From: Acidobacteriota bacterium
GTDB taxonomy: Bacteria; Acidobacteriota; Vicinamibacteria; Vicinamibacterales; UBA8438
Length of the DNA stretch: 64,000 nt
Assembly (NCBI GenBank): GCA_009861545.1
Contig: VXME01000150.1
Location: forward strand, 1 to 64,000
Direction of reading: 5' to 3'
Below the pieces are notes generated by a model, which saw only the letters and a list, made by a program, of their open reading frames with translations, searched no databases and had not been told where the DNA came from. The stretch's first letter is position 1. Every line of letters starts with the position of its first letter. This document shows, in pieces, positions 8,402 to 28,280 of this stretch. The translations under genes were made by a program, and so were the position numbers.

Positions 8402-9463
8402 CTATTCGGCGATGTGGACTTCCGCGATCGCGATCCCGCTCTCGCCGGCCACGGCGTACAGCAGAAAGATGCGCCCGCTGCCGGCGTCCTCGAAGATCGC
8501 GGGATCGCGGAGCTGGTTCACGTGCCCGTAGGCGGTGCTCCGGACGGACGGCTCGAGCGGCGCGTCGGCCCCTTCCCAGTCGAACTCCGGCCGCAGCACC
8601 TCGATGCCCGGGGTCTCCTTCCAGGTCATCCAGTCGCCGGCCAAGTCGATGGTGCTCAGCTTGATGTGCTCGGGCGCCTCGCCCACCTGCGTCCAGAAGA
8701 CGTAGAGCGTGTCGTCCCGCTTCAGCAGCGCCAGGTGGCGCATGTCCGCATTGAACAGCAGCGGTCCCTGCTCGAACCCGCCGAGCGGATCCCGCGACCG
8801 GTAGAACTGCCCCGGCATCGACAATGCGTAGGTGTAGCCGCCGTGCTCGAACACGCGCATGTAGGTCCGGCCGAGACGTTCGGGCCGCGTCTCGAAATCG
8901 ATGCCGTCGGGAGAGGTCGCCACCCGCGTCGTCTGCGTGCTGACATCGTCCAGGCCGTGGAAGTACATGACGATGCGGCGATTGGCGTCGTCGACGTGCA
9001 CGTCGGGCGACGCGATGTGCGGCGCGGTCGCCTCGAACAGTCCGTCGTGCGACATCGGCACCCCGCGCCGTTCCTGCGAGGCGCGCAGCCGCGCAGCCAC
9101 TTCGGGGGCGACCTCCGGCGGCTCGGTCAGGAAGTACGAATCGGCGATCTGCAGGCTGCCCGGCGGGTGGATGGTCCACGGCCCGAGCAGGTCGTCGGCG
9201 TACGCCAGGCGGATGTAGAGGCCCTTGTGGTCGGCGAAGTACAGGTAGTACCTGCCCAGCCGGTCCTCCACCCAATCGGGAACCTCGATCAGGGACGGGC
9301 CCTGGATGTTCACCCCGATGCTCGGGTGCAGATCCGGGGTGATGATCGGTGCGTCCAGCAGGCGCTCGACACGTACTTCGGACTCCGTCGTCTGTGCGTC
9401 GGCCGCGGCGGCTCCAAGAGCCATTGCCACCGCGGCGACGCCGATAAGCGTTCGCATCGTCAC
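8402..9463 (-). CDS. exported five-bladed beta-propeller glycosidase-like protein (GH43-type fold)
   Basis: The 353-residue product has a signal peptide ending near DAQ at residues 22-24. It then shows recurring propeller strands with GRYYLYFADHKGLYIRLAYADDLLGPW, RIVMYFHGL, MRVFEHGGYTYALSM, FYRSRDPLGGF, TLYVFWTQVG and RDPAIFEDAGSGRIFLLYAV. This alternation of (W/Y)YLYF and S/T-x-D-L/P-G-x-W/F is characteristic of GH43/GH32/GH117-like folds acting on carbohydrates. The catalytic carboxylates cannot be assigned with confidence, so 'hydrolase' is inference. The ATG two codons downstream is an alternative start. Confidence 0.65.
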   Translation of the reverse strand: MTMRTLIGVAAVAMALGAAAADAQTTESEVRVERLLDAPIITPDLHPSIGVNIQGPSLIEVPDWVEDRLGRYYLYFADHKGLYIRLAYADDLLGPWTIHPPGSLQIADSYFLTEPPEVAPEVAARLRASQERRGVPMSHDGLFEATAPHIASPDVHVDDANRRIVMYFHGLDDVSTQTTRVATSPDGIDFETRPERLGRTYMRVFEHGGYTYALSMPGQFYRSRDPLGGFEQGPLLFNADMRHLALLKRDDTLYVFWTQVGEAPEHIKLSTIDLAGDWMTWKETPGIEVLRPEFDWEGADAPLEPSVRSTAYGHVNQLRDPAIFEDAGSGRIFLLYAVAGESGIAIAEVHIAE

Positions 9464-9521: not shown

Positions 9522-10520
9522 TCACGGCCGCAGCTCGCGCCCCAGGCTTTCCAGGCGCCGCGCGCCGGCCAGAATGCCGGTCAGCCCGTAGTTCCCCTCG
9601 TGACAGGCGTACTCGAAGAGGTCCTGGTCGGTCCGGCGGAACGGCATCATCACCGTGTACGGCGCGGTAAAGACGGTCGGGTCCGTGACGGTGAACTCGT
9701 AGGCGACGGTGTCCGGATCGATACGGGTCAGGCGCTCTATCAGGTGCATGTTGGGTCCGGTGCCGCCGCTCTGCCCGCCCCGGAACTGCGTGGTCTCGAT
9801 GACCAGGGTCTCCCCTTCCCAGTGCCCGCGGGAGACGCCGGCGAACTGCGGGAACGGCGGCTTCGCAGTGTCGTCGTCGATCGGAATGACGCGCGCGTTG
9901 TGCACCATCTCGTTGAGGATGGTCACGTAGCCCGGCGTCTGGAAGATCATCACGTTGTTGTTGTAGGCGCTCGACCGCATGGGCGGACCGGAGTTGAAGC
10001 CCATGATGCAGCGATCGGCGAGGCTGCGGTTCTCGTACGAGTCGTAGCGGTGCTCCTCCTGATAGGCGCGCCGCTCCGCCGCCGCCTGGATCGCGGCTTC
10101 GGTGCGCGGCGGCAACCGGCCGTCGGGCGGATCGACAATCAGGGAAGTCCGCTTGTCGGAGGTCAGCTCGATGCCCCGCTCGTACCAGAACTCGTTGTAC
10201 GACAGGACGCCCCCTTCCGAACGCGGGCGATAGCCGGCCGCGCCCTTCTCCGGGTCGAAGAGGTCGCGGTTCAGCCGCACACGCTCCGCCGCCTCGAACG
10301 CGGCGGCCTCTTCGAGCGAGAGACTCTCCCGCCCTTCGAACTGCGCGGGCCGCTGGAACGGCGTCAGGGTGCGGAAGGTAAAGGTGCCGGACACGTCGGG
10401 CTGGCCATCCGGCGTCCGCATCGGCATCGTGCGCTCACCGGCCTGCGCGGCTGCGTCCGCCGGCGTGAGCGTGAGCACAACGGTCAGCACGAAGAACGCC
10501 GCGAGACAACTCCTGAGCAT
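9522..10520 (-). CDS. exported protein of unknown function, DGQPD/CHEGNYGLT family (copy 2)
   Basis: The product is 332 residues with a signal peptide (MLRSCLAAFFVLTVVLTL...ADAAAQA). It shares the block order of the paralog at 5736-6746: DGQPDVSGTF, TPFQRP, TSLIVDPPDGRLPP, NEMVHNARVIPID, GHWEGETLVIETT and CHEGNYGLTGILAGAR. One invariant cysteine lies in the last block. The start was chosen 15 codons inside the longest frame to give a clean signal peptide. It follows the propeller gene's start by 58 bp on the same strand. Its activity is unknown. Confidence 0.8.
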   Translation of the reverse strand: MLRSCLAAFFVLTVVLTLTPADAAAQAGERTMPMRTPDGQPDVSGTFTFRTLTPFQRPAQFEGRESLSLEEAAAFEAAERVRLNRDLFDPEKGAAGYRPRSEGGVLSYNEFWYERGIELTSDKRTSLIVDPPDGRLPPRTEAAIQAAAERRAYQEEHRYDSYENRSLADRCIMGFNSGPPMRSSAYNNNVMIFQTPGYVTILNEMVHNARVIPIDDDTAKPPFPQFAGVSRGHWEGETLVIETTQFRGGQSGGTGPNMHLIERLTRIDPDTVAYEFTVTDPTVFTAPYTVMMPFRRTDQDLFEYACHEGNYGLTGILAGARRLESLGRELRP

Positions 10521-12862: not shown

Positions 12863-13663
12863 CTACTTGAGGTCGGCGAACGCCACGTCGCGAGCCCGGA
12901 ACGCCGCGGTCAGCAGACGGCCGGCGTTCACCGCGGCCGGCCAGCCGGCGTAGAACGTGACATGCAGCACCACCTCGGACAGCTCCTGCGGGGTCACGCC
13001 GTTCTGGTCCAGGGCGCGATCGATGTGCAGCCGCAGCTCGTTGGTGACGTAGAGCGCCTGGTTCACCGCCACCGTGACGAGGCTGCGGTCGCGCTTCGAC
13101 AGCGTCGGCCGCTCCCAGATGTCGCCGTACAGCAGGCTGTTCCGCAACGCTCCGAGCCGCGGCACGGCCGCGTACGCGTCACTCAGACCGCCCGGCGTCG
13201 TCACCGCTTCCTCGAGATCGGGGGCGCGCGGCAGGTCGCCCAGGGTCACTCCCCGTGCCTCGAACGCCTCGGCCGCCGTCAGGGACGCCTGCACCCCGGT
13301 CGGCCAACCGGCGTAGAAGGTGACGTGCAGGATGATCTCTGAGATCTCCTCCGGCGTCAGCCCGTTGTCGAGGCCGCGCGGGATGTGGATTGCCAGCTCC
13401 TCGCGGGCCAGGGCCTGCAGAACGGCGATCGTGATCAGGCTGCGATCCCGCTTCGACAGGTAGGGACGCTCCCAGACCTCGCCGTAGACCAGGGTGTTTC
13501 GCAGCTCACGCAGATAGGGCGAACCGGCGTACAGGTCGGGCGCCGGCAGCGCGGGCACGTCGACCTGTTGCGCCGCCGCGGGCGCCGCGCCGGCGGACGG
13601 CAATCCGCAGGTCACCACGACCGCGACCAACGCTGCGACCTGAACCAGCCGTGATCTCTTCAT
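12863..13663 (-). CDS. exported tandem carboxymuconolactone-decarboxylase-like protein
   Basis: The 266-residue product has a signal peptide (about residues 1-30) followed by two copies of a CMD domain. Each copy contains a version of ERPxLSKRDRSLxTxAVxQAL, TPxExSExxLHVTFYAGWP and a terminal alpha-helix. The sequences resemble PcaC-type CMD proteins (gamma-carboxymuconolactone decarboxylase, protocatechuate pathway) rather than AhpD, because the mature protein contains no cysteine. An exported location is unusual for an aromatic-pathway enzyme, so the name indicates fold only. It precedes the PQQ dehydrogenase on the same strand (93 bp), suggesting co-transcription. Confidence 0.85.
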   Translation of the reverse strand: MKRSRLVQVAALVAVVVTCGLPSAGAAPAAAQQVDVPALPAPDLYAGSPYLRELRNTLVYGEVWERPYLSKRDRSLITIAVLQALAREELAIHIPRGLDNGLTPEEISEIILHVTFYAGWPTGVQASLTAAEAFEARGVTLGDLPRAPDLEEAVTTPGGLSDAYAAVPRLGALRNSLLYGDIWERPTLSKRDRSLVTVAVNQALYVTNELRLHIDRALDQNGVTPQELSEVVLHVTFYAGWPAAVNAGRLLTAAFRARDVAFADLK

Positions 13664-14106: not shown

Positions 14107-16608
14107 TCAGAAACCCGGCCGCCATTCCCAGGCGCAAACCTGGGTCGACCCGCGCAGCCACTCCAGCGCTGGTGAACCGATCGGGCTGCCCGGAGGCGCA
14201 ACAGGCATGGGCGCGGCCGGATTCGGAACGGGACCACCCGGTCGCTCGAGGAAGCGTTCAATCTCGCGCCGCAGCAATCGATTGTGGGTATCGGTCGCCG
14301 ATCGTCGGGTGTGGAGAGTGTGGATGCGCTCCAGTGTCTCCGCCGCGTGGGCGCGCACCTCCGCCATGGGAGCGCCCTCGGCGAGTCCCATCAACCGTTC
14401 GACGACAACCCGCTGCACCGCCCGCCGGACCGCGCGCGCGTACGCGGATTCGGCCGGCGTGTCGAAGACACCCTCCACCATCGCTTCCAGTACCTCCTCC
14501 AGGTCCGGCAGGGTGTCGTCGAGCATGGCCTGCTCGACCAGGCGGGCAGCCCGGGACGGGACGAGCATCCGCGAGACGGTCAGATCCGCCGCGACGATGG
14601 CCGGCGTCAGCGCATCGAACACCGGACCGGTCCGGCGCGGGAACAGCTCCCGATGCGGGCCGTGGCCCGGCGGCCGTGGAGGAATCCGTTGCAGCACGCT
14701 TTCCGGCAGCGCCAGCTCCGCCGGGTCGAGCGTGCGCAGGAGCGCCGCCAGCGCCGCCCGCTGGCGATCGCCCGGGACGGGGCTCACCGGCACGCGGCCG
14801 TCGCCCCGCAGCGCATAGACGTAGTCCACCCCGCCGAGCGCGGACGCCGCGGCATCGACCTGGTAGCGGTGGTGCAGGTAGAGCGGCACCAGCGCTTCCT
14901 CCAGCGTCGCCAGCGGGCGCCCGGCGGGAATCGCGCTCTCGCCGAAGCGGTCGAGGGCGACGCGGCGCACTTGCAGCATCCGCTCCAGCTCGCGGGCGGG
15001 GTCGGTGCCGTTGGCCCACAGGTGGACCCGCGGGTGTGCGGCGGCATCCTGGTTCGTCAGGTAGCGCAGGTCCTCGTCCCACGCCTCGTCGAGCAACCGC
15101 TGCAGCGCGGACGCCGTGTCGGTCCCGTCCGGATAGTCCTGGTAGCCATAGGCGATGGCCACTTCGTCCCATTCCCCGATGCCGACGTCGTAGGCGTCCG
15201 ACAGGTCGATCTGCGCGTCCGGGCCCAGCGTCACGAGCGGGTGCGGGTAGTCCATGACCGAGATCCGTCCCTGACTGCTCGCGTAGTAGTTGTGGCCGAG
15301 CCCCAGGGTGTGCCCTACCTCGTGCGCGGACAACTGGCGGATCCGCGCCAGCGCCAGATCCGCCAGCTCGGGCACTTCTTCGTCACCGCGCAGATAGGGC
15401 GAGAGCAGTCCCTCGGCGATGAGGTAGTCCTGCCGGACGCGCAGGGAACCGAGCGTGACGTGTCCCTTGATGATCTCGCCCGTGCGCGGATCGGTCACCG
15501 AGCTGCCGTAGCTCCAGCCCCGCGTGGAGCGGTGCACCCACTGGATGACGTTGTAGCGCACGTCGAGCGGATCGGCTCCCTCCGGCATCAGCTCCACGCG
15601 GAAGGCGTCCCGGTACCCGGCCGCCTCGAACGCCTGGCTCCACCAGCGCGCGCCATCCAGCAGCGCCGAGCGGATCGGCTCCGGCGTGCCCCGATCCAGG
15701 TAATAGACGATGGGCTCGACCGCCTCGCTGGTCTCCGCGCCCGGGTCGCGCTTCTCCAGGCGATGCCGGCGCAGATAGCGGCGGGTCATCGGATCGCCGA
15801 GCGGGGCCGCGTAGTCGACGTAGGAAACCGCGCCGTACCCGGCGCGCGGATCGTAGGGCCGCGGCGTATAGCCATCATCGGGCAGCGCGATGAAGGACTG
15901 CCGCTGCCGCACCGTCACCGCTTCGGCGCTGGGAGTCACCGCGTCGATGGAGCCGCGGCCGAAGCCGGGTCCGTCCCCGCGGCTCTCGCGCGCAAACGTG
16001 AGCGTGGCCTCCATCTCGGTGTTCTCGGGAAACGCCATCGTCCGGGCGAGGTGGACGGCGCTGCGCCGGCCGTCGAGCCGGTACGCGCCGGGCAGGCGAT
16101 CCGCGACGCCGTGGACGTCGCGCAGCAGGAACGGCGTGGCGTCGACGAGGAAGCGATCGTCGGTGCGCGCGGCGGCCGTGAACCCGAACAGAATCGAGGT
16201 GGCGAAGGCGTCCTCCACCGCCCGCCGTTCGTCCGGGTTCGAAGTGTCTGCGCGGTAGGCGTAGTTCGGCTGAACCATCAGGATCTTGCGGCCGACCCGC
16301 TCGAACCGCACGATGCGCGTGCCGCCGAGCTGCCCGCGGTCCAGACCGATATCGTTCGATCCCACCCCGGCGGCGAGCGCATTGACGTACAACACCTCGA
16401 CGCCGAGACGGCCGATCTCCAGCCAGAGCGTCCCGGCGTCGTCGTCCCAGTAGAGCGGAAAGAAGCCGTCCAGCCGCTCGAACCCGGCCGTATGCGACTC
16501 GATGGCCGGCAGGCCGCCCTCCCGTGCGCCGGCCGCGGCCGGCCAACCGAGCGCGGTCGAAATTGCGATTGCCGCTGCCGCCCGCAACGTGAACCTGGCC
16601 CTGATCAT
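14107..16608 (-). CDS. exported zinc metalloprotease, metzincin type (DUF5117/DUF5118-like)
   Basis: The 833-residue product has a signal peptide (MIRARFTLRAAAAIAISTALGWPAAAG). The extended zinc motif HEVGHTLGLGHN (HExxHxxGxxH, near residue 427) is followed by a Met-turn-like SVMDYPHP about 20 residues later, the hallmark of metzincin peptidases. The N-terminal half (LWLEIGRLGVEVLYVNALAAGVGSN and onward) resembles the DUF5117/5118 regions of large bacterial zinc-dependent metalloproteases. It is likely periplasmic or surface-exposed. It lies downstream of three tandem paralogs of unknown function on the same strand (109 bp gap), and could be in one transcript with them. Confidence 0.85.
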   Translation of the reverse strand: MIRARFTLRAAAAIAISTALGWPAAAGAREGGLPAIESHTAGFERLDGFFPLYWDDDAGTLWLEIGRLGVEVLYVNALAAGVGSNDIGLDRGQLGGTRIVRFERVGRKILMVQPNYAYRADTSNPDERRAVEDAFATSILFGFTAAARTDDRFLVDATPFLLRDVHGVADRLPGAYRLDGRRSAVHLARTMAFPENTEMEATLTFARESRGDGPGFGRGSIDAVTPSAEAVTVRQRQSFIALPDDGYTPRPYDPRAGYGAVSYVDYAAPLGDPMTRRYLRRHRLEKRDPGAETSEAVEPIVYYLDRGTPEPIRSALLDGARWWSQAFEAAGYRDAFRVELMPEGADPLDVRYNVIQWVHRSTRGWSYGSSVTDPRTGEIIKGHVTLGSLRVRQDYLIAEGLLSPYLRGDEEVPELADLALARIRQLSAHEVGHTLGLGHNYYASSQGRISVMDYPHPLVTLGPDAQIDLSDAYDVGIGEWDEVAIAYGYQDYPDGTDTASALQRLLDEAWDEDLRYLTNQDAAAHPRVHLWANGTDPARELERMLQVRRVALDRFGESAIPAGRPLATLEEALVPLYLHHRYQVDAAASALGGVDYVYALRGDGRVPVSPVPGDRQRAALAALLRTLDPAELALPESVLQRIPPRPPGHGPHRELFPRRTGPVFDALTPAIVAADLTVSRMLVPSRAARLVEQAMLDDTLPDLEEVLEAMVEGVFDTPAESAYARAVRRAVQRVVVERLMGLAEGAPMAEVRAHAAETLERIHTLHTRRSATDTHNRLLRREIERFLERPGGPVPNPAAPMPVAPPGSPIGSPALEWLRGSTQVCAWEWRPGF

Positions 16609-16717
16609 CCGCTCTCTCCTTCGGCGAGTCCGTTTCCGCCGGCAGCGTAGCACGCAGTTGGAGCGCCCGCGGCCCGACGCGGCGCGGGAAACGCGGTGGC
16701 AACGGAGGGCCGGTCGG

Positions 16718-17647
16718 TCAGTTGCGGAATGGCTCGGACTCGTCGACCACCACGCGGAAGCGGCGGAAGCGACTGTAGGTGGCCACGCCTTCGACCTCCG
16801 AGCCGCTCTCCAGATTGTGGTAGCGCTCGCGCATCTCCACCGGTGCGGGGTGTTCCAGCTCCGCGGGCATCCCGTAGCGGACCGCGACGAGCGATTCGAC
16901 GTCGTTGCCGTCGAGAGCCAGCTCGCTGGCCAGCACGCGGCCGCTCGCAGCCTCGATCCAGAAGTGGCCTCGCGCGGGCACGTTCTCGCGATCGCCCCCG
17001 CGGACTACGGTGGTCGGCGCCGTTTCCCGGTAGGCGACGACCCACACGCCGGCGCTCTCCGGCAGGTCGACGCCCAGGCCCGGCGGACGGTCCGCTACGC
17101 GCTCGAACGCGAACCGCCGCTTGTACGACTCGCGCAGAAAGAGGAGCGCGAAGGTCGGCGTGTTGGTGGTGCGCCGGACGTCGCCGACGTTGTAGCGCGC
17201 GCTCTCCGCCAGAATCCCCCGCACCCGGTCGTCCAGCGACGCCCCCGTGTCGAGAAAAAGCCCGGCCAGCCGATCATCGCGATCCCGGACCCGGCTGCCG
17301 TTGGCTTCGAAGACGTCCCGGAAGCCGAAGTGCCGGCGGGCGCCCTCCGGCTGGACCAGGAGATAGTCCGAACGCAGCGTAGCGCGTTGGACGGCGTCGT
17401 TCCCGCGCCGCTGGAAGACGCCGGACTGCGTGGCCCGCTGCTCGTACCGCTCCTCCATCACGACGCCCGAAAGCTGCGCGTGGAGCTGCTCGACGTAGTG
17501 CGTCGCACGGACGAGCACGAGCCAGAGCGACGGCTCCTGCGCCAGACCCGGCAGCGCCGGAGCCAGGGTCAGGGTCAGCGCCAACACCGGAATCAACGTC
17601 CGAATCCCGGTGGGCGCCGTACTGCCCCTGGCGGCCTCGTTGTCCAT
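16718..17647 (-). CDS. exported protein of unrecognised family, tandem paralog 1 of 3
   Basis: The 309-residue product has a signal peptide ending near LPGLAQ, then the same block order as its two neighbours: YVEQLHAQLSGVVMEERY, LRSDYLLVQPEG, FGFRDVFEANGSRVRDR, SARYNVGD, TPTFALLFL, VWVVAYRET, GRVLASELALDGNDVESLV, PVEMRERYHNLESGSEVEG and ATYSRFRRFRVVVDE. I do not recognise a named domain. It is predicted mostly beta in the second half and secreted. It lies 64 bp downstream of paralog 2. The start was set at an ATG eight codons into the longest frame. Confidence 0.75.
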   Translation of the reverse strand: MDNEAARGSTAPTGIRTLIPVLALTLTLAPALPGLAQEPSLWLVLVRATHYVEQLHAQLSGVVMEERYEQRATQSGVFQRRGNDAVQRATLRSDYLLVQPEGARRHFGFRDVFEANGSRVRDRDDRLAGLFLDTGASLDDRVRGILAESARYNVGDVRRTTNTPTFALLFLRESYKRRFAFERVADRPPGLGVDLPESAGVWVVAYRETAPTTVVRGGDRENVPARGHFWIEAASGRVLASELALDGNDVESLVAVRYGMPAELEHPAPVEMRERYHNLESGSEVEGVATYSRFRRFRVVVDESEPFRN

Positions 17648-17711
17648 GTTCGCCTCCGTCCCACCTGTCACAGGAGTGGCCTCGGACGACGACGCCGGCG
17701 CCCGCGCTCGA

Positions 17712-18665
17712 TCAATCGCGAAACGGCGCCGACTCCTCCACGAGCACCTGGAAACGCCGGAAGCGGCTGTAGGTCGCCGTACCCTCCACGCGCGAACCGC
17801 TGCGCCGATTGTTGTATCGCTCCCGCATCTCGACCGGTACGAGGTGGTCCAGCTCGTCCGGCCTCTCGTAGCGGACGGTGACCAGCGACTCGAGCCCTTC
17901 GTCCTCCAGCGCGAGCTCCGTGACCAGGACGCGACCCGTGCGCGGGTCGATCCAGTAGCGGCCCCCGGCCGGCAGGTTGCCGCCTCGACGACGGCGGATC
18001 ACGGTGGTCGGCCAGGTCTCCCGGTACGCGATCACCCAGACGCCATCGTCATCCGGCTCGTCGATCCCGAGGCTCGGAGACCGGTCTCGCACGCGTTCGA
18101 ACTCGAACCGCGGCTTGTACGACTGCCGCAGGAAGAGCAGCGCCAAGGTCGGCGTGTTGGTGTTGCGCTGGATGTCGCCGACGTTGTAGCGCGCGCTGTC
18201 GGTCAGGATGCCCTGCACCCGCCGGTCCACCGTCGACCGGCCGTCGAGAAAGAGCTGCGTCAGCCGCTCCTCCCGATCGCGCACCCGGCTGCCGTTGGCC
18301 TCGAAGACGTCCCGGAAGCCGAAGTACCGCTCGGAGCCTTCCGGACGCACCAGGAGATAATCCGAGCGCAGGGTGACCCGCTCGTAGGAATCGTTCCCGA
18401 ACCCGAAGCCCGGCGACGACGCTCGCTGCTGATAGCGCTCCTCCATCACCACGCCGGAGAGCTGCGCGTGCAGTTCCTCGACGTACTCGGTGGCCCGCGC
18501 GAGCAACTGCGGCAGCGAGGGTTCCTGGGCCCGACCGGGGCCTGCGGACACCAGGGCCAGCGTCAAGGCGACGCCCGCCGCCGGCGCCGCGCGCCCTGCC
18601 GCCGCCAGGCGCGACCACCGGCGCGCGCAGGAAACGATGCCGGTCCGTGTCCAACGTCGACCCAT
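17712..18665 (-). CDS. exported protein of unrecognised family, tandem paralog 2 of 3
   Basis: The 317-residue product has a long N-terminal region ending in a signal peptide (VALTLALVSAGPGRAQ), then the shared blocks: YVEELHAQLSGVVMEERY, LRSDYLLVRPEG, YFGFRDVFEANGSRVRDR, SARYNVGD, NTPTLALLFL, RYWIDPRTGRVLVTELALE, ESLVTVRYE, PVEMRERYNNRRSGSRVEG and ATYSRFRRFQVLVEE. The frame continues open far upstream to 19730, but that part overlaps paralog 3 out of frame, so the ATG at 18665 was chosen. No function can be assigned. Confidence 0.75.
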   Translation of the reverse strand: MGRRWTRTGIVSCARRWSRLAAAGRAAPAAGVALTLALVSAGPGRAQEPSLPQLLARATEYVEELHAQLSGVVMEERYQQRASSPGFGFGNDSYERVTLRSDYLLVRPEGSERYFGFRDVFEANGSRVRDREERLTQLFLDGRSTVDRRVQGILTDSARYNVGDIQRNTNTPTLALLFLRQSYKPRFEFERVRDRSPSLGIDEPDDDGVWVIAYRETWPTTVIRRRRGGNLPAGGRYWIDPRTGRVLVTELALEDEGLESLVTVRYERPDELDHLVPVEMRERYNNRRSGSRVEGTATYSRFRRFQVLVEESAPFRD

Positions 18666-18772
18666 GGGCTTCAGGCGACTATACCGCCGTCGGGCGAAGC
18701 GAGCCACCGTCGAGCAGCCGCGCTCGACACGGCGCACTCGCGAGCCGCGCCCGGCGCAGCCGCGCGACGGAC

Positions 18773-19675
18773 TCAGTTGCGGACCGGCGCGGACTCCTCG
18801 ACGAGCACCTGGAACCGGCGAAAGCGCCTGTACGTCGCCGTGCCCTCGACGCGAGACCCCGTCAGGAGATTGCGGTAGCGTTCGCGCATCTCGACCGGCA
18901 CGAAGTGCCCGAGCGTGTCGTTCGCCTCGTAGCGGACGGTGATGAGCGCCTCGAGGCTGTCGGAGTCCAGGACGAGCTCGCTGAGGAACACACGGCCGGT
19001 CGCCGGTTCGACCCAGTATCGCCCGCGGACGGGCAGGCGCTGATCGTCCCGCCCGCGAATCACGGTGATCGCTCCCGTTTCCTCGTAGTCGACGACCCAC
19101 AGGCCCAGGCCGCGTCCGGGTGCATCGATTCGCAGGCGGGTGGTGGCGTCGGTTCCGCGGCGGAACTCGAATCGGTCCTTGTACGCGGAACTGAGAAAGA
19201 GCAAGGCCATGGTGGGCGTGTTGATGTTGCGCTCGACGTCGCCGACGTTGTAGCGGGCGCTGTCGGCCACGATTTCCCGGATCCGCCGGTCCACCGATGC
19301 GGAGCGGTCGAGAAAGAGCTCCATCAGGCGTTCCTCGCGGTCGCGAACGGCTCGTCCGTTGACTGCGAAGACATCCCGGAAGCCCAAATGACGTTCGGAT
19401 CCCCGGGGCTGCACGAGGAGGTAGTCCGAAAGGAGCGTCACGCGACCGATTCGCGGAATCTGCCTGGCATACTGGGGCGGCACCCGCGAACGCTGCTCGT
19501 ACCGCTCCTCCATCACCACGCCGGCGAGCTCCCGGTGCAGCTCGTCGACGTATTGGGTCGCCTGCGTCAGCACGGCAGCCAGCGAGGGCTCCTGCGTGCC
19601 GCCCGCCGCGGGCGTCTGCGTCAGGGCGAGCGCGACGAGCGATGCCGACCGCATACGGGTCACGGAGAATCTCAT
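18773..19675 (-). CDS. exported protein of unrecognised family, tandem paralog 3 of 3
   Basis: The 300-residue product has a short signal peptide (SASLVALALTQTPAAGG) and the family blocks: YVDELHRELAGVVMEERY, LLSDYLLVQPRG, HLGFRDVFAVNGRAVRDR, SARYNVGD, NTPTMALLFL, RYWVEPATGRVFLSELVLD, PVEMRERYRNLLTGSRVEG and ATYRRFRRFQVLVEE. It is the first gene of the minus-strand set and starts 153 bp from the divergent PQQ dehydrogenase gene. The ATG at 19675 is preceded by a purine-rich site (GGGAGAACG). Function unknown. Confidence 0.75.
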   Translation of the reverse strand: MRFSVTRMRSASLVALALTQTPAAGGTQEPSLAAVLTQATQYVDELHRELAGVVMEERYEQRSRVPPQYARQIPRIGRVTLLSDYLLVQPRGSERHLGFRDVFAVNGRAVRDREERLMELFLDRSASVDRRIREIVADSARYNVGDVERNINTPTMALLFLSSAYKDRFEFRRGTDATTRLRIDAPGRGLGLWVVDYEETGAITVIRGRDDQRLPVRGRYWVEPATGRVFLSELVLDSDSLEALITVRYEANDTLGHFVPVEMRERYRNLLTGSRVEGTATYRRFRRFQVLVEESAPVRN

Positions 19676-19828: not shown

Positions 19829-21595
19829 ATGCACCATTCGATTCCAGTCGGCCGCCGCGCTTCCCTGCTAGCCGCAACGCTCCTGTTGGCGACCGCCGGT
19901 CCCGTGGCGGGTCAGAGCCCGGCGGACGCCGAATTCGTCCCCGTCACCGACGCCATGCTGCAGAGCCCCGCGGACGGCGACTGGTTGATGTGGCGCCGCA
20001 CGCTGGACGGCTGGGGCTACAGCCCGCTCGATCAGATCGATCGCGACAACGTCGGCGACCTGCGCATGGTGTGGACGCGGGCGCTGGGGCCCGGCGCACA
20101 GCAGGGCACGCCGATCGCCTACGGCGGCACGCTGTACATGCCGAACCCGAACGACGTCATCCAGGCGATCGACGCGGTGACCGGCGACCTGCAGTGGGAG
20201 TACCACCGCGATATCCCCGACGACGTCAACGACTATCTGGGCGGACTGATCAGCGTCAACCGCAACATCGCGATCTGGGACGACATGATCATCGACACCG
20301 CCAACGACGATTACGCCTTCGCGCTGAACGCCACGACCGGCGAGCTGGTCTGGGAGACGCAACTCTTCGACTACACGCAGAATCCCGCCCGGCACTCGGC
20401 CGGCCCCATCGTCGCCGACGGCAAGGTGATCTCCGGGCGGAGCTGCCGCCCCCGGCGCGGTCCCGAGGCCTGCGTCATCATGGCCCACGACGCCCGGACC
20501 GGCGAGGAGATTTGGCGGCGCCGACTCATCCCGGCCCCCGGCGAGCCGGGCGACGAGTCGTGGGGCGGCGTGCCCTACGAGGAGCGAGCCCACGTCGGCT
20601 CGTGGATGGTGCCGAGCTTCGATCCCGAGCTGAACCTGGTCTACGTCGGGACGTCGGTCACCTCGCCGGCGCCCAAGTTCATGCTGGGCGGGGTCGACAA
20701 CAAGCACCTCTACCACAACTCCACCCTGGCGCTGGACGCCGACACCGGCGAGATCGTGTGGTACTACCAGCACCTGAACGACAGTTGGGACCTCGACCAT
20801 CCGTTCGAGCGGCTGCTGGTCGATACCGCCGTCGCGCCGGATGCGAGCGAGGTGACCTGGATCAACCCGCGCATCCAGCCCGGCGAGGTCCGCCGCGTCG
20901 TGACCGGGGTTCCCGGCAAGACCGGCGTGGTCTACACGCTCGACCGGGAGACCGGCGAGTTCCTCTGGGCCAGGAACACCGTCACGCAGAACGTCATCAG
21001 CGACATCGACGGGGCCACCGGCGCGGTCACCGAGAACGCCGAGCTCGTCTTCAGTGCGGAGGGCCAGGAGGTCCTCGCCTGCCCCACCTGGAACGGCGGC
21101 AAGGACTGGGAGGCCGGCGCCTACAGCCCCCTGACCAACACCATGTACATGCCGCTGCGCAACGCCTGTGCGCGCATGCTGGCGACCACCGCGCCGGGAA
21201 CCTCGCACTACGCCCTCGCCGTCCGCAACCAGATCGCGCCCGGCACCGACCAGGTCGGTACGGTCCACGCCATCTCCGCCGAGACGGGCGAGACGGTGTG
21301 GCTGCACGAGCAGCGCGCGGCCACGATGTCGCTGGTAGCCACCGGCGGCGGGCTGGTCTTCGGGGGCGACAACAACGGCCGGTTCAAGGCGTGGGATCAG
21401 GAGACCGGCGAGGTCCTCTGGGAGATCAACCTCGGCTCGGCGGTGACGAGCTTCCCGATCAGCTACGCGGTGGACGGCAAGCAGTACATCGCGGTCGGTA
21501 CCGGGACCGCCAGCACCGCTTCTCTGTTCGGCCGGCTGACGCCGGAGATCCGGCCCAGCGCCGGCAACAACCTGTTCGTCTTCGCGCTCCCTTGA
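19829..21595 (+). CDS. exported PQQ-dependent alcohol dehydrogenase-like quinoprotein (copy A)
   Basis: The 588-residue product has a signal peptide (SLLAATLLLATAGPVAGQ) and quinoprotein propeller repeats such as NPNDVIQAIDAVTGDLQWEY, FALNATTGELVWE and VYTLDRETGEFLW. The catalytic region reads WDLD at residues 320-323; in PQQ alcohol dehydrogenases the first Asp is the base, and an Asp two positions on is the mark of lanthanide-using enzymes. There is no fused cytochrome c domain. A near-twin of identical length lies at 29064-30830. Ribosome site GAAGGA precedes the ATG. The stop codon coincides with the first bases of an integrase remnant, so the C-terminus ends FALP where the twin has FALPE. 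Confidence 0.88.
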   Translation: MHHSIPVGRRASLLAATLLLATAGPVAGQSPADAEFVPVTDAMLQSPADGDWLMWRRTLDGWGYSPLDQIDRDNVGDLRMVWTRALGPGAQQGTPIAYGGTLYMPNPNDVIQAIDAVTGDLQWEYHRDIPDDVNDYLGGLISVNRNIAIWDDMIIDTANDDYAFALNATTGELVWETQLFDYTQNPARHSAGPIVADGKVISGRSCRPRRGPEACVIMAHDARTGEEIWRRRLIPAPGEPGDESWGGVPYEERAHVGSWMVPSFDPELNLVYVGTSVTSPAPKFMLGGVDNKHLYHNSTLALDADTGEIVWYYQHLNDSWDLDHPFERLLVDTAVAPDASEVTWINPRIQPGEVRRVVTGVPGKTGVVYTLDRETGEFLWARNTVTQNVISDIDGATGAVTENAELVFSAEGQEVLACPTWNGGKDWEAGAYSPLTNTMYMPLRNACARMLATTAPGTSHYALAVRNQIAPGTDQVGTVHAISAETGETVWLHEQRAATMSLVATGGGLVFGGDNNGRFKAWDQETGEVLWEINLGSAVTSFPISYAVDGKQYIAVGTGTASTASLFGRLTPEIRPSAGNNLFVFALP

Positions 21596-25562: not shown

Positions 25563-28280
25563 ATGTGGCGGCAACTCCATCTCCGGCTGCGCTCGCTCTT
25601 CCGCCGGCATGGGCAGGAAAGCGAGCTCGACGAGGAGATCCGATTTCATCTCGCCAACGAGACCGAGGAGCTGATGGCCGCCGGGATGTCACCCAAGGAG
25701 GCCCGCGCTGCTGCGCAGCGCGATTTCGGCAACGTGACGCTCATCCGCGAGTTGACCCGCGAAGCCTGGGGCTGGGCTCCTGCCGAGCGCTTCCTTCACG
25801 ACATTCGCTCCGCGATACGGGGGGTGCAGAAGGCCAAGGGCTGGGCGCTCGTCGTGCTGGCCTCGCTCGCCTTGGGCATCGGCGCCAACACCGCGCTCTT
25901 CAGCGCCGTCGACGGGCTGCTCTTCAGGACGATTCCGGTCCCGGACCCCGACGGTCTCGTACGCCTGCGTTGGACCGGCGACAACGGCGCCAGGCATGTT
26001 GGGATCTCCTACGGCTACACCCGGGGAGACGGCGTCCAGGGGTACTTCTCCTACCCCGTCTTCGAAGCCCTGCGGGACGCCAACGAGACGCTCTCCGGGC
26101 TGTTCGCGGTGGCGCAGACGCCGTTGACCCTGATCGTCGACGGCAGGGCCGAGGTCGCAACCGGCTTCGCCGCTACCGGCGGCTACTTCGGGGTCCTCGG
26201 CCTGCGGCCGGCCGCGGGCCGCGCCATCGGCCCCGACGACGACCGGCCGGGAGCCGAGCCGGTGGCGATGATCAGCCATCGGTTCCGGCAACGCCGCTTC
26301 GACGCGGACGAGGAAGCGGTAGGCAAGGTCATCCGCGTGAACGACGTCCCCACCACCATCGTGGGCGTGCTCCCCCCCGGCTACACCGGCATTCGGCGGC
26401 CGGACGCCGCCGCCGCCGACGTGCACCTGCCCCTCGCCACCCTGCCCCTGCCGGAACGCGACGATCGCCTGGCGGACGGGACGACGTGGTGGCTCCCGAT
26501 CATGGGGCGGCTGAAACCGGGGGCGACCGCGGCCCAGGTGCAGGGCAACCTGGACGGGGTGCTCCGGGCCGCCGCGCAATCGGCGCTGGCGTCGCACCTC
26601 GACGGCCTGTCCGAGGAAGAACGGGCGCTCCCGCGGAACCGCGATCTGAGCGCCGAGCCGCGGCTGCTCGTCGATTCCGGCCGGCAGGGCCTCTACGACG
26701 CGAATCCCCGGTCGTCCGGCCAGGCCCTCGTCCTGGGCGTCGTCGTCGCCCTCGTCCTGCTCATCGTGTGCGCCAACGTGGCCACGCTGCTGCTGTCGCG
26801 GGCGGTGTCACGACACCGCGAGGTGGCGATCCGCATGTCGGTCGGCGCTTCGCGGGGACGGCTGATTCGGCAACTGGTGACCGAGAGCCTGTTCCTGTCG
26901 GCGACCGGTGGGGCGCTCGCGCTGCCTGTTGCCTGGGCGGCGCGTGGACTGCTGCCGTTCGGCCAGACGAGCCCGTTCGACTGGCGGGTCTTCGCGTTCG
27001 CCGCGATGCTGAGCCTGGCCGCCGGGATGATGTTCAGTCTCGTGCCGGCCCTGCGCGCCACCCGCGCCGAGCCGTTGGACGCGCTCAAGGAACAGAGCCG
27101 GAGCGTGACCCTGTCGCGCTCCCGGCTGAGCCGGGCGTTGATCGTGGTCCAGGTCGCGTTGTCGCTGGCGCTGCTGGTCGGCGCCGGGCTCTTCCTCAAG
27201 ACCCTGGCCAACCTGCGAGGCGTCGACGTCGGGTTCAATCCGGAGCAGGTGCTGCTGTTCCAGATGGACTCGGCGCGGAGCGGCTACGGCCCCGAGGAGT
27301 CGGTCGCGCTCTACGCCAGGGTCCGCGACAGCGTGCAGCGGCTGCCGGGCGTGCGCTCCGTCACCATGGCGCAGCAGGCGCTACTGGCCGGCGGGAGGTC
27401 GAGGGGCACGGTCCACGTCGAGGGCGGGACCGACCCGGGACGCGCCACGCACATGATGACCGTGGCGCCCGGCTTCTTCGACACGATGGAGATTTCGCTG
27501 CTGGCGGGACGCGCCTTCGAGGCCCGCGACGACGCGGACGCGCCGAGGGTCGCAGTGATCAACGCAGCCGCCGCGACGGAGCTGTTCGGGGTCGAGAATG
27601 CCGTCGGCCGGCGGTTCGGTTTCGACCAGGAGGAGCGCGGCGAGATCGAGGTCGTTGGCGTCGCCCGGGACAACCGCTACGACGACCTCCGGGGCGCGGT
27701 GCCGCCGACGGTGTTCCGCTCGGCCGTGCAGTCTCCCCTGCGCGCCGCCACGTTCGCGGTCCGGACCGGCGGCCCCCCGAACGCCCTGACGCCGGCGGTG
27801 CGCGAAGCCGTCCGGCAGATCGACCCGCGGCTCCCGATCATGAACGTCACCACCCAGACCGCGGCGATCGAGCAGCGGTTGTCCGACGAGCGCCTCTACG
27901 CCCTCGCCTATACCGCCTTCGGCGGCCTGGCGACGCTGCTGGCCGCCATCGGGCTGTTCGGGCTGGCCTCGTACACCGTCACGCAGCGCACCAACGAGGT
28001 CGGCATCCGGATGGCACTCGGCGCGCCGTCGACGGGCATCGCCTGGATGGTCCTGCGCGAGTCGCTGGTGCTCGTCGCCGCCGGCGTCGCGGCCGGGGTC
28101 GGCATGGTGCTGCTCGCCGGACGCCTGATCGCGAGCCTGATCCACGGTCTCGCCCCCACCGACCCGATCACGATCGTGCAGGCGGCTGCGCTGCTGGCGG
28201 GAATCGCGGCGGCGGCTGTCTGGTTCCCCGCGCGCCGCGCCGCGCGCGTCGACCCCCTGACCGCCCTCCACAAAGAGTGA
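25563..28280 (+). CDS. ADOP-type ABC transporter permease (MacB/FtsX-like), full length
   Basis: The 905-residue product has the N-terminal ADOP cap (ELDEEIRFHLANETEEL, GMSPKEARAAAQRDFGN, about residues 20-60), then TM1 (ALVVLASLALGIGANTALFS), a large periplasmic MacB-type domain, an FtsX bundle around residues 380-480, a second periplasmic domain and a final FtsX bundle ending FPARRAARVDPLTALHKE. No ATPase gene is adjacent, hence 'orphan permease'. The ATG at 25563 is preceded by GAGGCACG. With the PadR gene it should form a two-gene operon. The substrate is unknown; antimicrobial or lipoprotein export is typical of MacB relatives. Confidence 0.9.
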   Translation: MWRQLHLRLRSLFRRHGQESELDEEIRFHLANETEELMAAGMSPKEARAAAQRDFGNVTLIRELTREAWGWAPAERFLHDIRSAIRGVQKAKGWALVVLASLALGIGANTALFSAVDGLLFRTIPVPDPDGLVRLRWTGDNGARHVGISYGYTRGDGVQGYFSYPVFEALRDANETLSGLFAVAQTPLTLIVDGRAEVATGFAATGGYFGVLGLRPAAGRAIGPDDDRPGAEPVAMISHRFRQRRFDADEEAVGKVIRVNDVPTTIVGVLPPGYTGIRRPDAAAADVHLPLATLPLPERDDRLADGTTWWLPIMGRLKPGATAAQVQGNLDGVLRAAAQSALASHLDGLSEEERALPRNRDLSAEPRLLVDSGRQGLYDANPRSSGQALVLGVVVALVLLIVCANVATLLLSRAVSRHREVAIRMSVGASRGRLIRQLVTESLFLSATGGALALPVAWAARGLLPFGQTSPFDWRVFAFAAMLSLAAGMMFSLVPALRATRAEPLDALKEQSRSVTLSRSRLSRALIVVQVALSLALLVGAGLFLKTLANLRGVDVGFNPEQVLLFQMDSARSGYGPEESVALYARVRDSVQRLPGVRSVTMAQQALLAGGRSRGTVHVEGGTDPGRATHMMTVAPGFFDTMEISLLAGRAFEARDDADAPRVAVINAAAATELFGVENAVGRRFGFDQEERGEIEVVGVARDNRYDDLRGAVPPTVFRSAVQSPLRAATFAVRTGGPPNALTPAVREAVRQIDPRLPIMNVTTQTAAIEQRLSDERLYALAYTAFGGLATLLAAIGLFGLASYTVTQRTNEVGIRMALGAPSTGIAWMVLRESLVLVAAGVAAGVGMVLLAGRLIASLIHGLAPTDPITIVQAAALLAGIAAAAVWFPARRAARVDPLTALHKE

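What the first reader, a model, noticed from the sequence alone, without database searches (positions are those of the whole stretch)
16718..19675. Tandem triplication of an unrecognised exported protein family beside a metalloprotease
Three consecutive minus-strand genes encode signal-peptide proteins of about 300-317 residues with the same blocks in the same order (VVMEERY; SDYLLV; GFRDVF; SARYNVGD; TPTxALLFL; PVEMRERY; RFRRFxVxV), and I cannot place them in a named family. They lead into a metzincin-type protease gene and are divergent from a PQQ dehydrogenase. Local triplication of secreted proteins often means dosage or variant-specific binding. They may be substrates, inhibitors or partners of the protease.
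Basis: partly seen in the sequence, partly recalled or inferred. Interest (0 to 1): 0.7.

Follow-up and report, generated by a model that had tools for sequence, protein, structure and literature searches.

The report
Tandem triplicated LolA-fold periplasmic proteins

Summary
Three consecutive minus-strand genes (18773-19675, 17712-18665, 16718-17647) encode exported proteins of 300-317 aa that are 57-65% identical, followed by a DUF5117/DUF4953 met-zincin gene. Sequence libraries do not name them: no significant Pfam-A, NCBIfam or PDB-sequence match. Structure does: AlphaFold2 models of a window copy and of a 37-39%-identical relative both match LolA/LolB-superfamily structures first (Foldseek probability 1.00; Z about 10 over about 195 residues), and profile-profile comparison weakly agrees. 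The family occurs in most Vicinamibacterales genomes, beside a separate canonical LolA, and sporadically elsewhere in Acidobacteriota. The triplet and the protease linkage are found only in the four genomes of this genus, where each position is its own orthologous line: old, separately maintained paralogues. A sister lineage has one copy next to the same CMD and PQQ-dehydrogenase genes, without the protease. Across 97 loci the recurrent partner is instead an acidobacterial VWFA domain, fused N-terminally in 14 and adjacent in 8. Best reading: soluble periplasmic LolA-fold carriers or binders of acylated cargo. The fold is a well-supported prediction; ligand and role are inferred.

The parts
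18773..19675 (-). Copy C (P0001, 300 aa), exported LolA-fold family protein, first gene of the run
   Evidence: orthologous group of position C in four genomes
17712..18665 (-). Copy B (P0002, 317 aa), exported LolA-fold family protein; structure modelled (residues about 45-307 confident)
16718..17647 (-). Copy A (P0003, 309 aa), exported LolA-fold family protein; the most divergent of the three between species
14107..16608 (-). Exported met-zincin (833 aa; DUF5117 + DUF4953) with HEVGHTLGLGHN; next gene on the same strand in this genus only
12863..13663 (-). Carboxymuconolactone decarboxylase-family protein (two CMD domains); older neighbour, kept next to the single copy of a sister lineage
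   Evidence: L068
10727..12799 (-). PQQ-dependent dehydrogenase, conserved downstream neighbour
19829..21595 (+). Divergent PQQ-dependent dehydrogenase

Best explanation
The three genes encode soluble, exported (periplasmic) proteins with a LolA/LolB-type beta-clam: an N-terminal helix, a curved antiparallel sheet, and a helical insertion in the place of the LolA lid. As in other proteins of this fold, the clam most likely holds an acyl chain of a lipid, or the lipid anchor of a lipoprotein, and carries or presents it in the envelope. The three copies are old paralogues, each kept as a distinct line, and so probably handle different cargo or partners. In this genus they are probably transcribed together with a met-zincin. 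Shown by computation: gene anatomy, family relations, orthologous lines. Predicted: fold, export. Inferred: ligand, transport role, specialisation, co-transcription.
For: Two AlphaFold2 models from divergent members (P0002: pLDDT 79, pTM 0.77; L041 member, 37-39% identical to the window copies: pLDDT 83, pTM 0.79) both return LolA-superfamily structures first: 3bk5, DUF1329 4z48, LolA3 9tp6, LolB 9tpm, NE2245 3buu (Foldseek probability 0.97-1.00 where among the leading rows; Z 8.3-10.4 over 176-201 residues). hhalign of 57 family rows ranks LolA (probability 20.9, E 0.0011) and LolA_like (10.9) first and second of 22 alignments; the 20 unrelated ones reach at most 1.1. Leader sequence, no lipobox, no cysteine in the mature part. 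Paralogue lines A, B and C each group across four genomes (SH-aLRT 94, 85, 100), with dN/dS 0.15-0.48, i.e. purifying. LolA holds lipoprotein acyl chains in a hydrophobic cavity (PMC9457489), and the superfamily also includes the triacylglyceride binder LprG (PMC6363788).
Against: A shared fold does not show function: RseB is a regulator and VioE an enzyme with the same fold. TM-scores are low (at most 0.45) and sequence identity to the hits is about 5-12%. The most conserved positions include many charged residues (9 R, 6 E, 2 D of 58 near-invariant), more than a purely greasy cavity needs. No recurrent adjacency to LolCDE, RND or MMPL transporters was seen, though this was only read from neighbourhood clusters, not searched for by name.
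Confidence: 0.5

Rival explanations
1. LolA-fold sensor or regulator, working like RseB: the protein binds an envelope signal (lipid or mislocalised component) and passes it on by protein contact, with VWFA domains as the contact partner in other families of the order.
For: The same domain is C-terminal to a VWFA domain in 14 of 97 loci, in families f3, f4, f5, f7, f11, f15 and one unassigned contig, and VWFA genes are commoner within three genes of the family (10 of 518 near genes against 1 of 444 far genes, p 0.014). RseB is among the structural matches.
Against: No sigma factor, anti-sigma factor or two-component gene was recognised beside the window copies; the window copies have no second domain; RseB ranks below LolA-like structures, with Foldseek probability at most 0.66.
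Confidence: 0.2
2. Partners of the neighbouring met-zincin (substrate, inhibitor or chaperone).
For: Same strand, gaps of 64-109 nt in the window, and the same four-gene order in all four genomes of the genus.
Against: The met-zincin neighbours the family in 4 of 97 loci, all in this genus; a sister lineage has the gene with CMD and PQQ dehydrogenase but without the protease (L068); most Vicinamibacterales carry the family without this linkage. In another branch an M14 carboxypeptidase is near, but with a MutS-like gene between them.
Confidence: 0.15
3. LolA-fold enzyme (as VioE is): the invariant E-E, R-D and E-x-x-E residues form an active or polar binding site.
For: Signature V-x-E-E-x-Y-x-Q, F-R-D-V-F, P-x-E-M-x-E-x-Y kept in nearly all of 25 members.
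Against: No substrate-linked gene recurs next to the family across the order; conserved charges may only hold the lid, as R43 does in LolA (PMC9457489).
Confidence: 0.1

Closest known systems
LolA / LolB (PF03548; lipoprotein carrier and receptor)
   Same: Predicted beta-clam fold and N-terminal helix; soluble exported protein like LolA; weak profile similarity (probability 20.9, best of 22 alignments)
   Different: No PF03548 match; about 260-residue domain against about 180; conserved charged signature; a separate canonical LolA exists in the same genome
LolA_like, PF17131, and DUF1329-type proteins (structures 3bk5, 4z48, 3buu)
   Same: Best structural matches in size and topology (Z 8.3-10.4)
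   Different: No Pfam match; the genome has its own PF17131 protein elsewhere
RseB (LolA-fold sensor of sigma-E stress)
   Same: Fold of one domain; a LolA-fold domain in multi-domain proteins elsewhere in this order
   Different: No second domain in the window copies; no anti-sigma factor recognised nearby
LprG / LppX (mycobacterial lipid-carrying lipoproteins)
   Same: LolA-type clam; among matches of the second model (Z 6.6-7.1)
   Different: No lipobox here; no sequence similarity found
Acidobacterial VWFA-domain proteins (TIGR03436)
   Same: Fused to the family domain in 14 of 97 loci
   Different: The window copies lack this domain, although the genome has 24 matches elsewhere

Membership tests
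LolA/LolB fold superfamily | Beta-clam of curved antiparallel sheet with N-terminal helix and helical lid | tested here: met
   Two models match LolA-superfamily structures first, probability 1.00, Z about 10 over about 195 residues; predicted structure only
LolA/LolB fold superfamily | Hydrophobic cavity that holds acyl chains | not testable with these tools
   No coordinates to measure a cavity; most strands show one more hydrophobic face, which is only consistent with it
LolA family proper (PF03548) | Match to the family model | tested here: not met
   25 members scanned, no PF03548 match at E up to 1
LolA family proper (PF03548) | Being the genome's general lipoprotein carrier | tested here: inconclusive
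   A separate PF03548 protein in this genome and in 28 of 31 genomes makes it unlikely; function itself was not tested
LolA_like (PF17131) | Match to the family model | tested here: not met
   No match in 25 members; PF17131 is elsewhere in the genome
LolB | Lipoprotein anchor (lipobox cysteine) | tested here: not met
   No cysteine at or after the leader junction in P0001-P0003
RseB | LolA-fold domain followed by a second RseB domain | tested here: not met
   Single domain that reaches to about residue 307 of 317; no RseB-type Pfam match

The most novel reading that the evidence does not exclude
Vicinamibacterales have a private envelope pathway, parallel to canonical LolA, in which this LolA-fold domain, alone, in tandem or fused to a VWFA domain, carries or senses a lineage-specific acylated cargo, with paralogues tuned to different cargo.
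Probability: 0.2. Interest if true: 0.6.

Novelty: new member of a known kind. Interest (0 to 1): 0.35.

Why it matters
It gives a predicted fold, and so testable biochemistry, to a family of unannotated exported proteins found in most genomes of an abundant order of acidobacteria. It also shows that the striking protease neighbour is a local arrangement, and that the recurrent partner is the acidobacterial VWFA domain, itself of unknown function.

Tried and rejected
Pfam-A, NCBIfam and PDB-sequence searches gave nothing significant; the weak PepSY hit (E 0.15) is below cut-off and not supported by the fold search. Recent dosage amplification: rejected, because copies are 57-65% identical and form position-specific lines. 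Diversifying selection: whole-gene dN/dS is 0.15-0.48, below 1; copies evolve faster than the protease (0.16-0.17) and CMD (0.10-0.13) but stay under purifying selection; site tests were not run. PQQ dehydrogenase as a functional partner: 12 near and 12 far genes, no enrichment. The promoter scan found no sigma-70-like site, uninformative in this lineage. Literature searches found no paper on this family or on the VWFA partner, and none on DUF4953 among the rows listed. One contig hit (L047) and a few fetched stretches (L080, L081, L180, L199, L200, L211, L212) were not recognised by my simple gene caller and are left out of the 97 loci.

Full report
OBSERVATION. The window holds three consecutive minus-strand ORFs (C 18773-19675, B 17712-18665, A 16718-17647) of 300, 317 and 309 aa. 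Each begins with a hydrophobic leader; no cysteine follows the leader, so they look like soluble exported proteins and not lipoproteins (no signal-peptide program was available). A search of the whole genome finds these three and no other copy.

SURROUNDINGS. The next gene, 14107-16608, is an exported met-zincin with DUF5117 and DUF4953 and an intact zinc motif. Then follow a CMD-family protein, a PQQ dehydrogenase, and two proteins without a Pfam family; the divergent gene at 19829-21595 is another PQQ dehydrogenase. Gaps between the four same-strand genes are 107, 64 and 109 nt, without a minus-strand terminator-like site.

NO SEQUENCE FAMILY. No Pfam-A or NCBIfam model gives a significant match for the window proteins; among 25 family members the best Pfam E-value is 0.054 and the best NCBIfam E-value 0.0086, each in a single member. 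No PDB sequence matches the profile.

FOLD. The alignment of 25 members gave a model of P0002 with pLDDT 79 and pTM 0.77, confident from about residue 45 to 307: one long helix, then a mostly antiparallel sheet with a helical insertion after the third strand. Foldseek against the PDB puts a LolA-like protein (3bk5) and a DUF1329 protein first and second, LolA3 fourth and LolB in the first twelve; the second aligner gives them Z 10.1, 10.1, 9.6 and 9.2. A second model, of a distant member (37-39% identical to the window copies), gives the same families. Both models share most of their alignment rows, so they are not fully independent. TM-scores stay at or below 0.45. Profile-profile comparison is weak but points the same way: LolA and LolA_like rank first and second among 22 alignments. 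I take the LolA-superfamily fold as well supported, as a prediction.

NOT LolA ITSELF. The family misses the PF03548 and PF17131 models, and the genome has a protein of each elsewhere; PF03548 is found in 28 of 31 genomes of the lineage.

DISTRIBUTION. 54 of 60 related genomes, all of this order, have the family. In a sample of the phylum 46 of 297 genomes have it: 30 of 32 in this order by my count of the rows, 16 elsewhere (at most 8 candidates per genome were scored, so counts are lower bounds). A scan of the species-genome collection with two short motifs returned 16 loci, all acidobacterial; the choice of motifs limits this.

HISTORY OF THE TRIPLET. In the four genomes of the genus the same block C-B-A-met-zincin-CMD-PQQ recurs (one has a short called ORF between the protease and CMD). 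In the tree each position forms its own group across the four genomes (support C 100, B 85, A 94; the last two are below the 95 mark and this is a quick tree). The triplication therefore most likely predates the genus. The near relatives outside it have single copies at such loci; one (L068) keeps family gene-CMD-PQQ without the protease. dN/dS computed is 0.15-0.48 for the copies, 0.16-0.17 for the protease and 0.10-0.13 for CMD and the downstream PQQ dehydrogenase. Nineteen sites are fixed differently between the lines, spread over the fold.

PARTNERS. In 97 loci with the family, the met-zincin is within three genes in 4, all in this genus; an M14 carboxypeptidase in 11, eight of them one inherited M14-MutS-family arrangement in taxonomic family f1; a VWFA gene in 8. 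In 14 loci the family domain is the C-terminal part of a protein with an N-terminal VWFA domain, in families f3, f4, f5, f7, f11 and f15 and one unassigned contig. NCBIfam's TIGR03436 matches six of six such proteins tested at E 4e-10 or better, one of them above the curated cut-off. VWFA genes are 10 of 518 near and 1 of 444 far genes (p 0.014), M14 11 and 1 (p 0.008); loci are not independent, so these p values are optimistic.

HOW IT PROBABLY WORKS. LolA and LolB are incomplete beta-barrels with a hydrophobic cavity under a helical lid, and LolA holds lipoprotein acyl chains there (PMC9457489); LprG binds triacylglycerides, RseB is a regulator and VioE an enzyme of the same fold (PMC6363788). 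Holding acyl chains is the task best documented for exported proteins of this fold, so I commit to carriers or binders of acylated cargo, at 0.5, with sensor (0.2), protease partner (0.15) and enzyme (0.1) as rivals. The many invariant charged residues are the main feature this reading does not explain.

VERDICT. A real, old, lineage-specific triplication in an unnamed family of a known fold; the protease linkage is local. Interest 0.35.

Noticed in passing
L048, L071, L077, L078, L082, L162, L165, L167, L168, L175, L176, L178, L189, L203: The family domain is fused C-terminally to an acidobacterial VWFA domain (TIGR03436-like), an architecture not described in the papers found.
   Followed up: partly
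L156, L157, L161, L163, L164, L166, L171, L173: A second subfamily in the same taxonomic family keeps the gene order M14 carboxypeptidase - MutS-like gene - family gene.
   Followed up: partly
window 9525-10520 and 8405-9457: Two exported-looking proteins without any Pfam-A match; relatives of the first recur in many loci of this lineage (cluster c2).
   Followed up: no
window 25563-28280: MacB/FtsX-type permease (905 aa, MacB_PCD and FtsX domains); such genes are no commoner near the family (6 of 518) than far from it (11 of 444).
   Followed up: partly
window 14284-16650 (+): Open frame of 788 aa antisense to the met-zincin, and similar long antisense frames elsewhere: probably a by-product of high G+C.
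   Followed up: no
window 16718-17647 and the same position in L034, L035, L036: Copy A is 95% identical to its counterpart in L036 but only 65-68% to those in L034 and L035, while copies B and C stay at 81-90%: accelerated change, or a different paralogue at that position.
   Followed up: no
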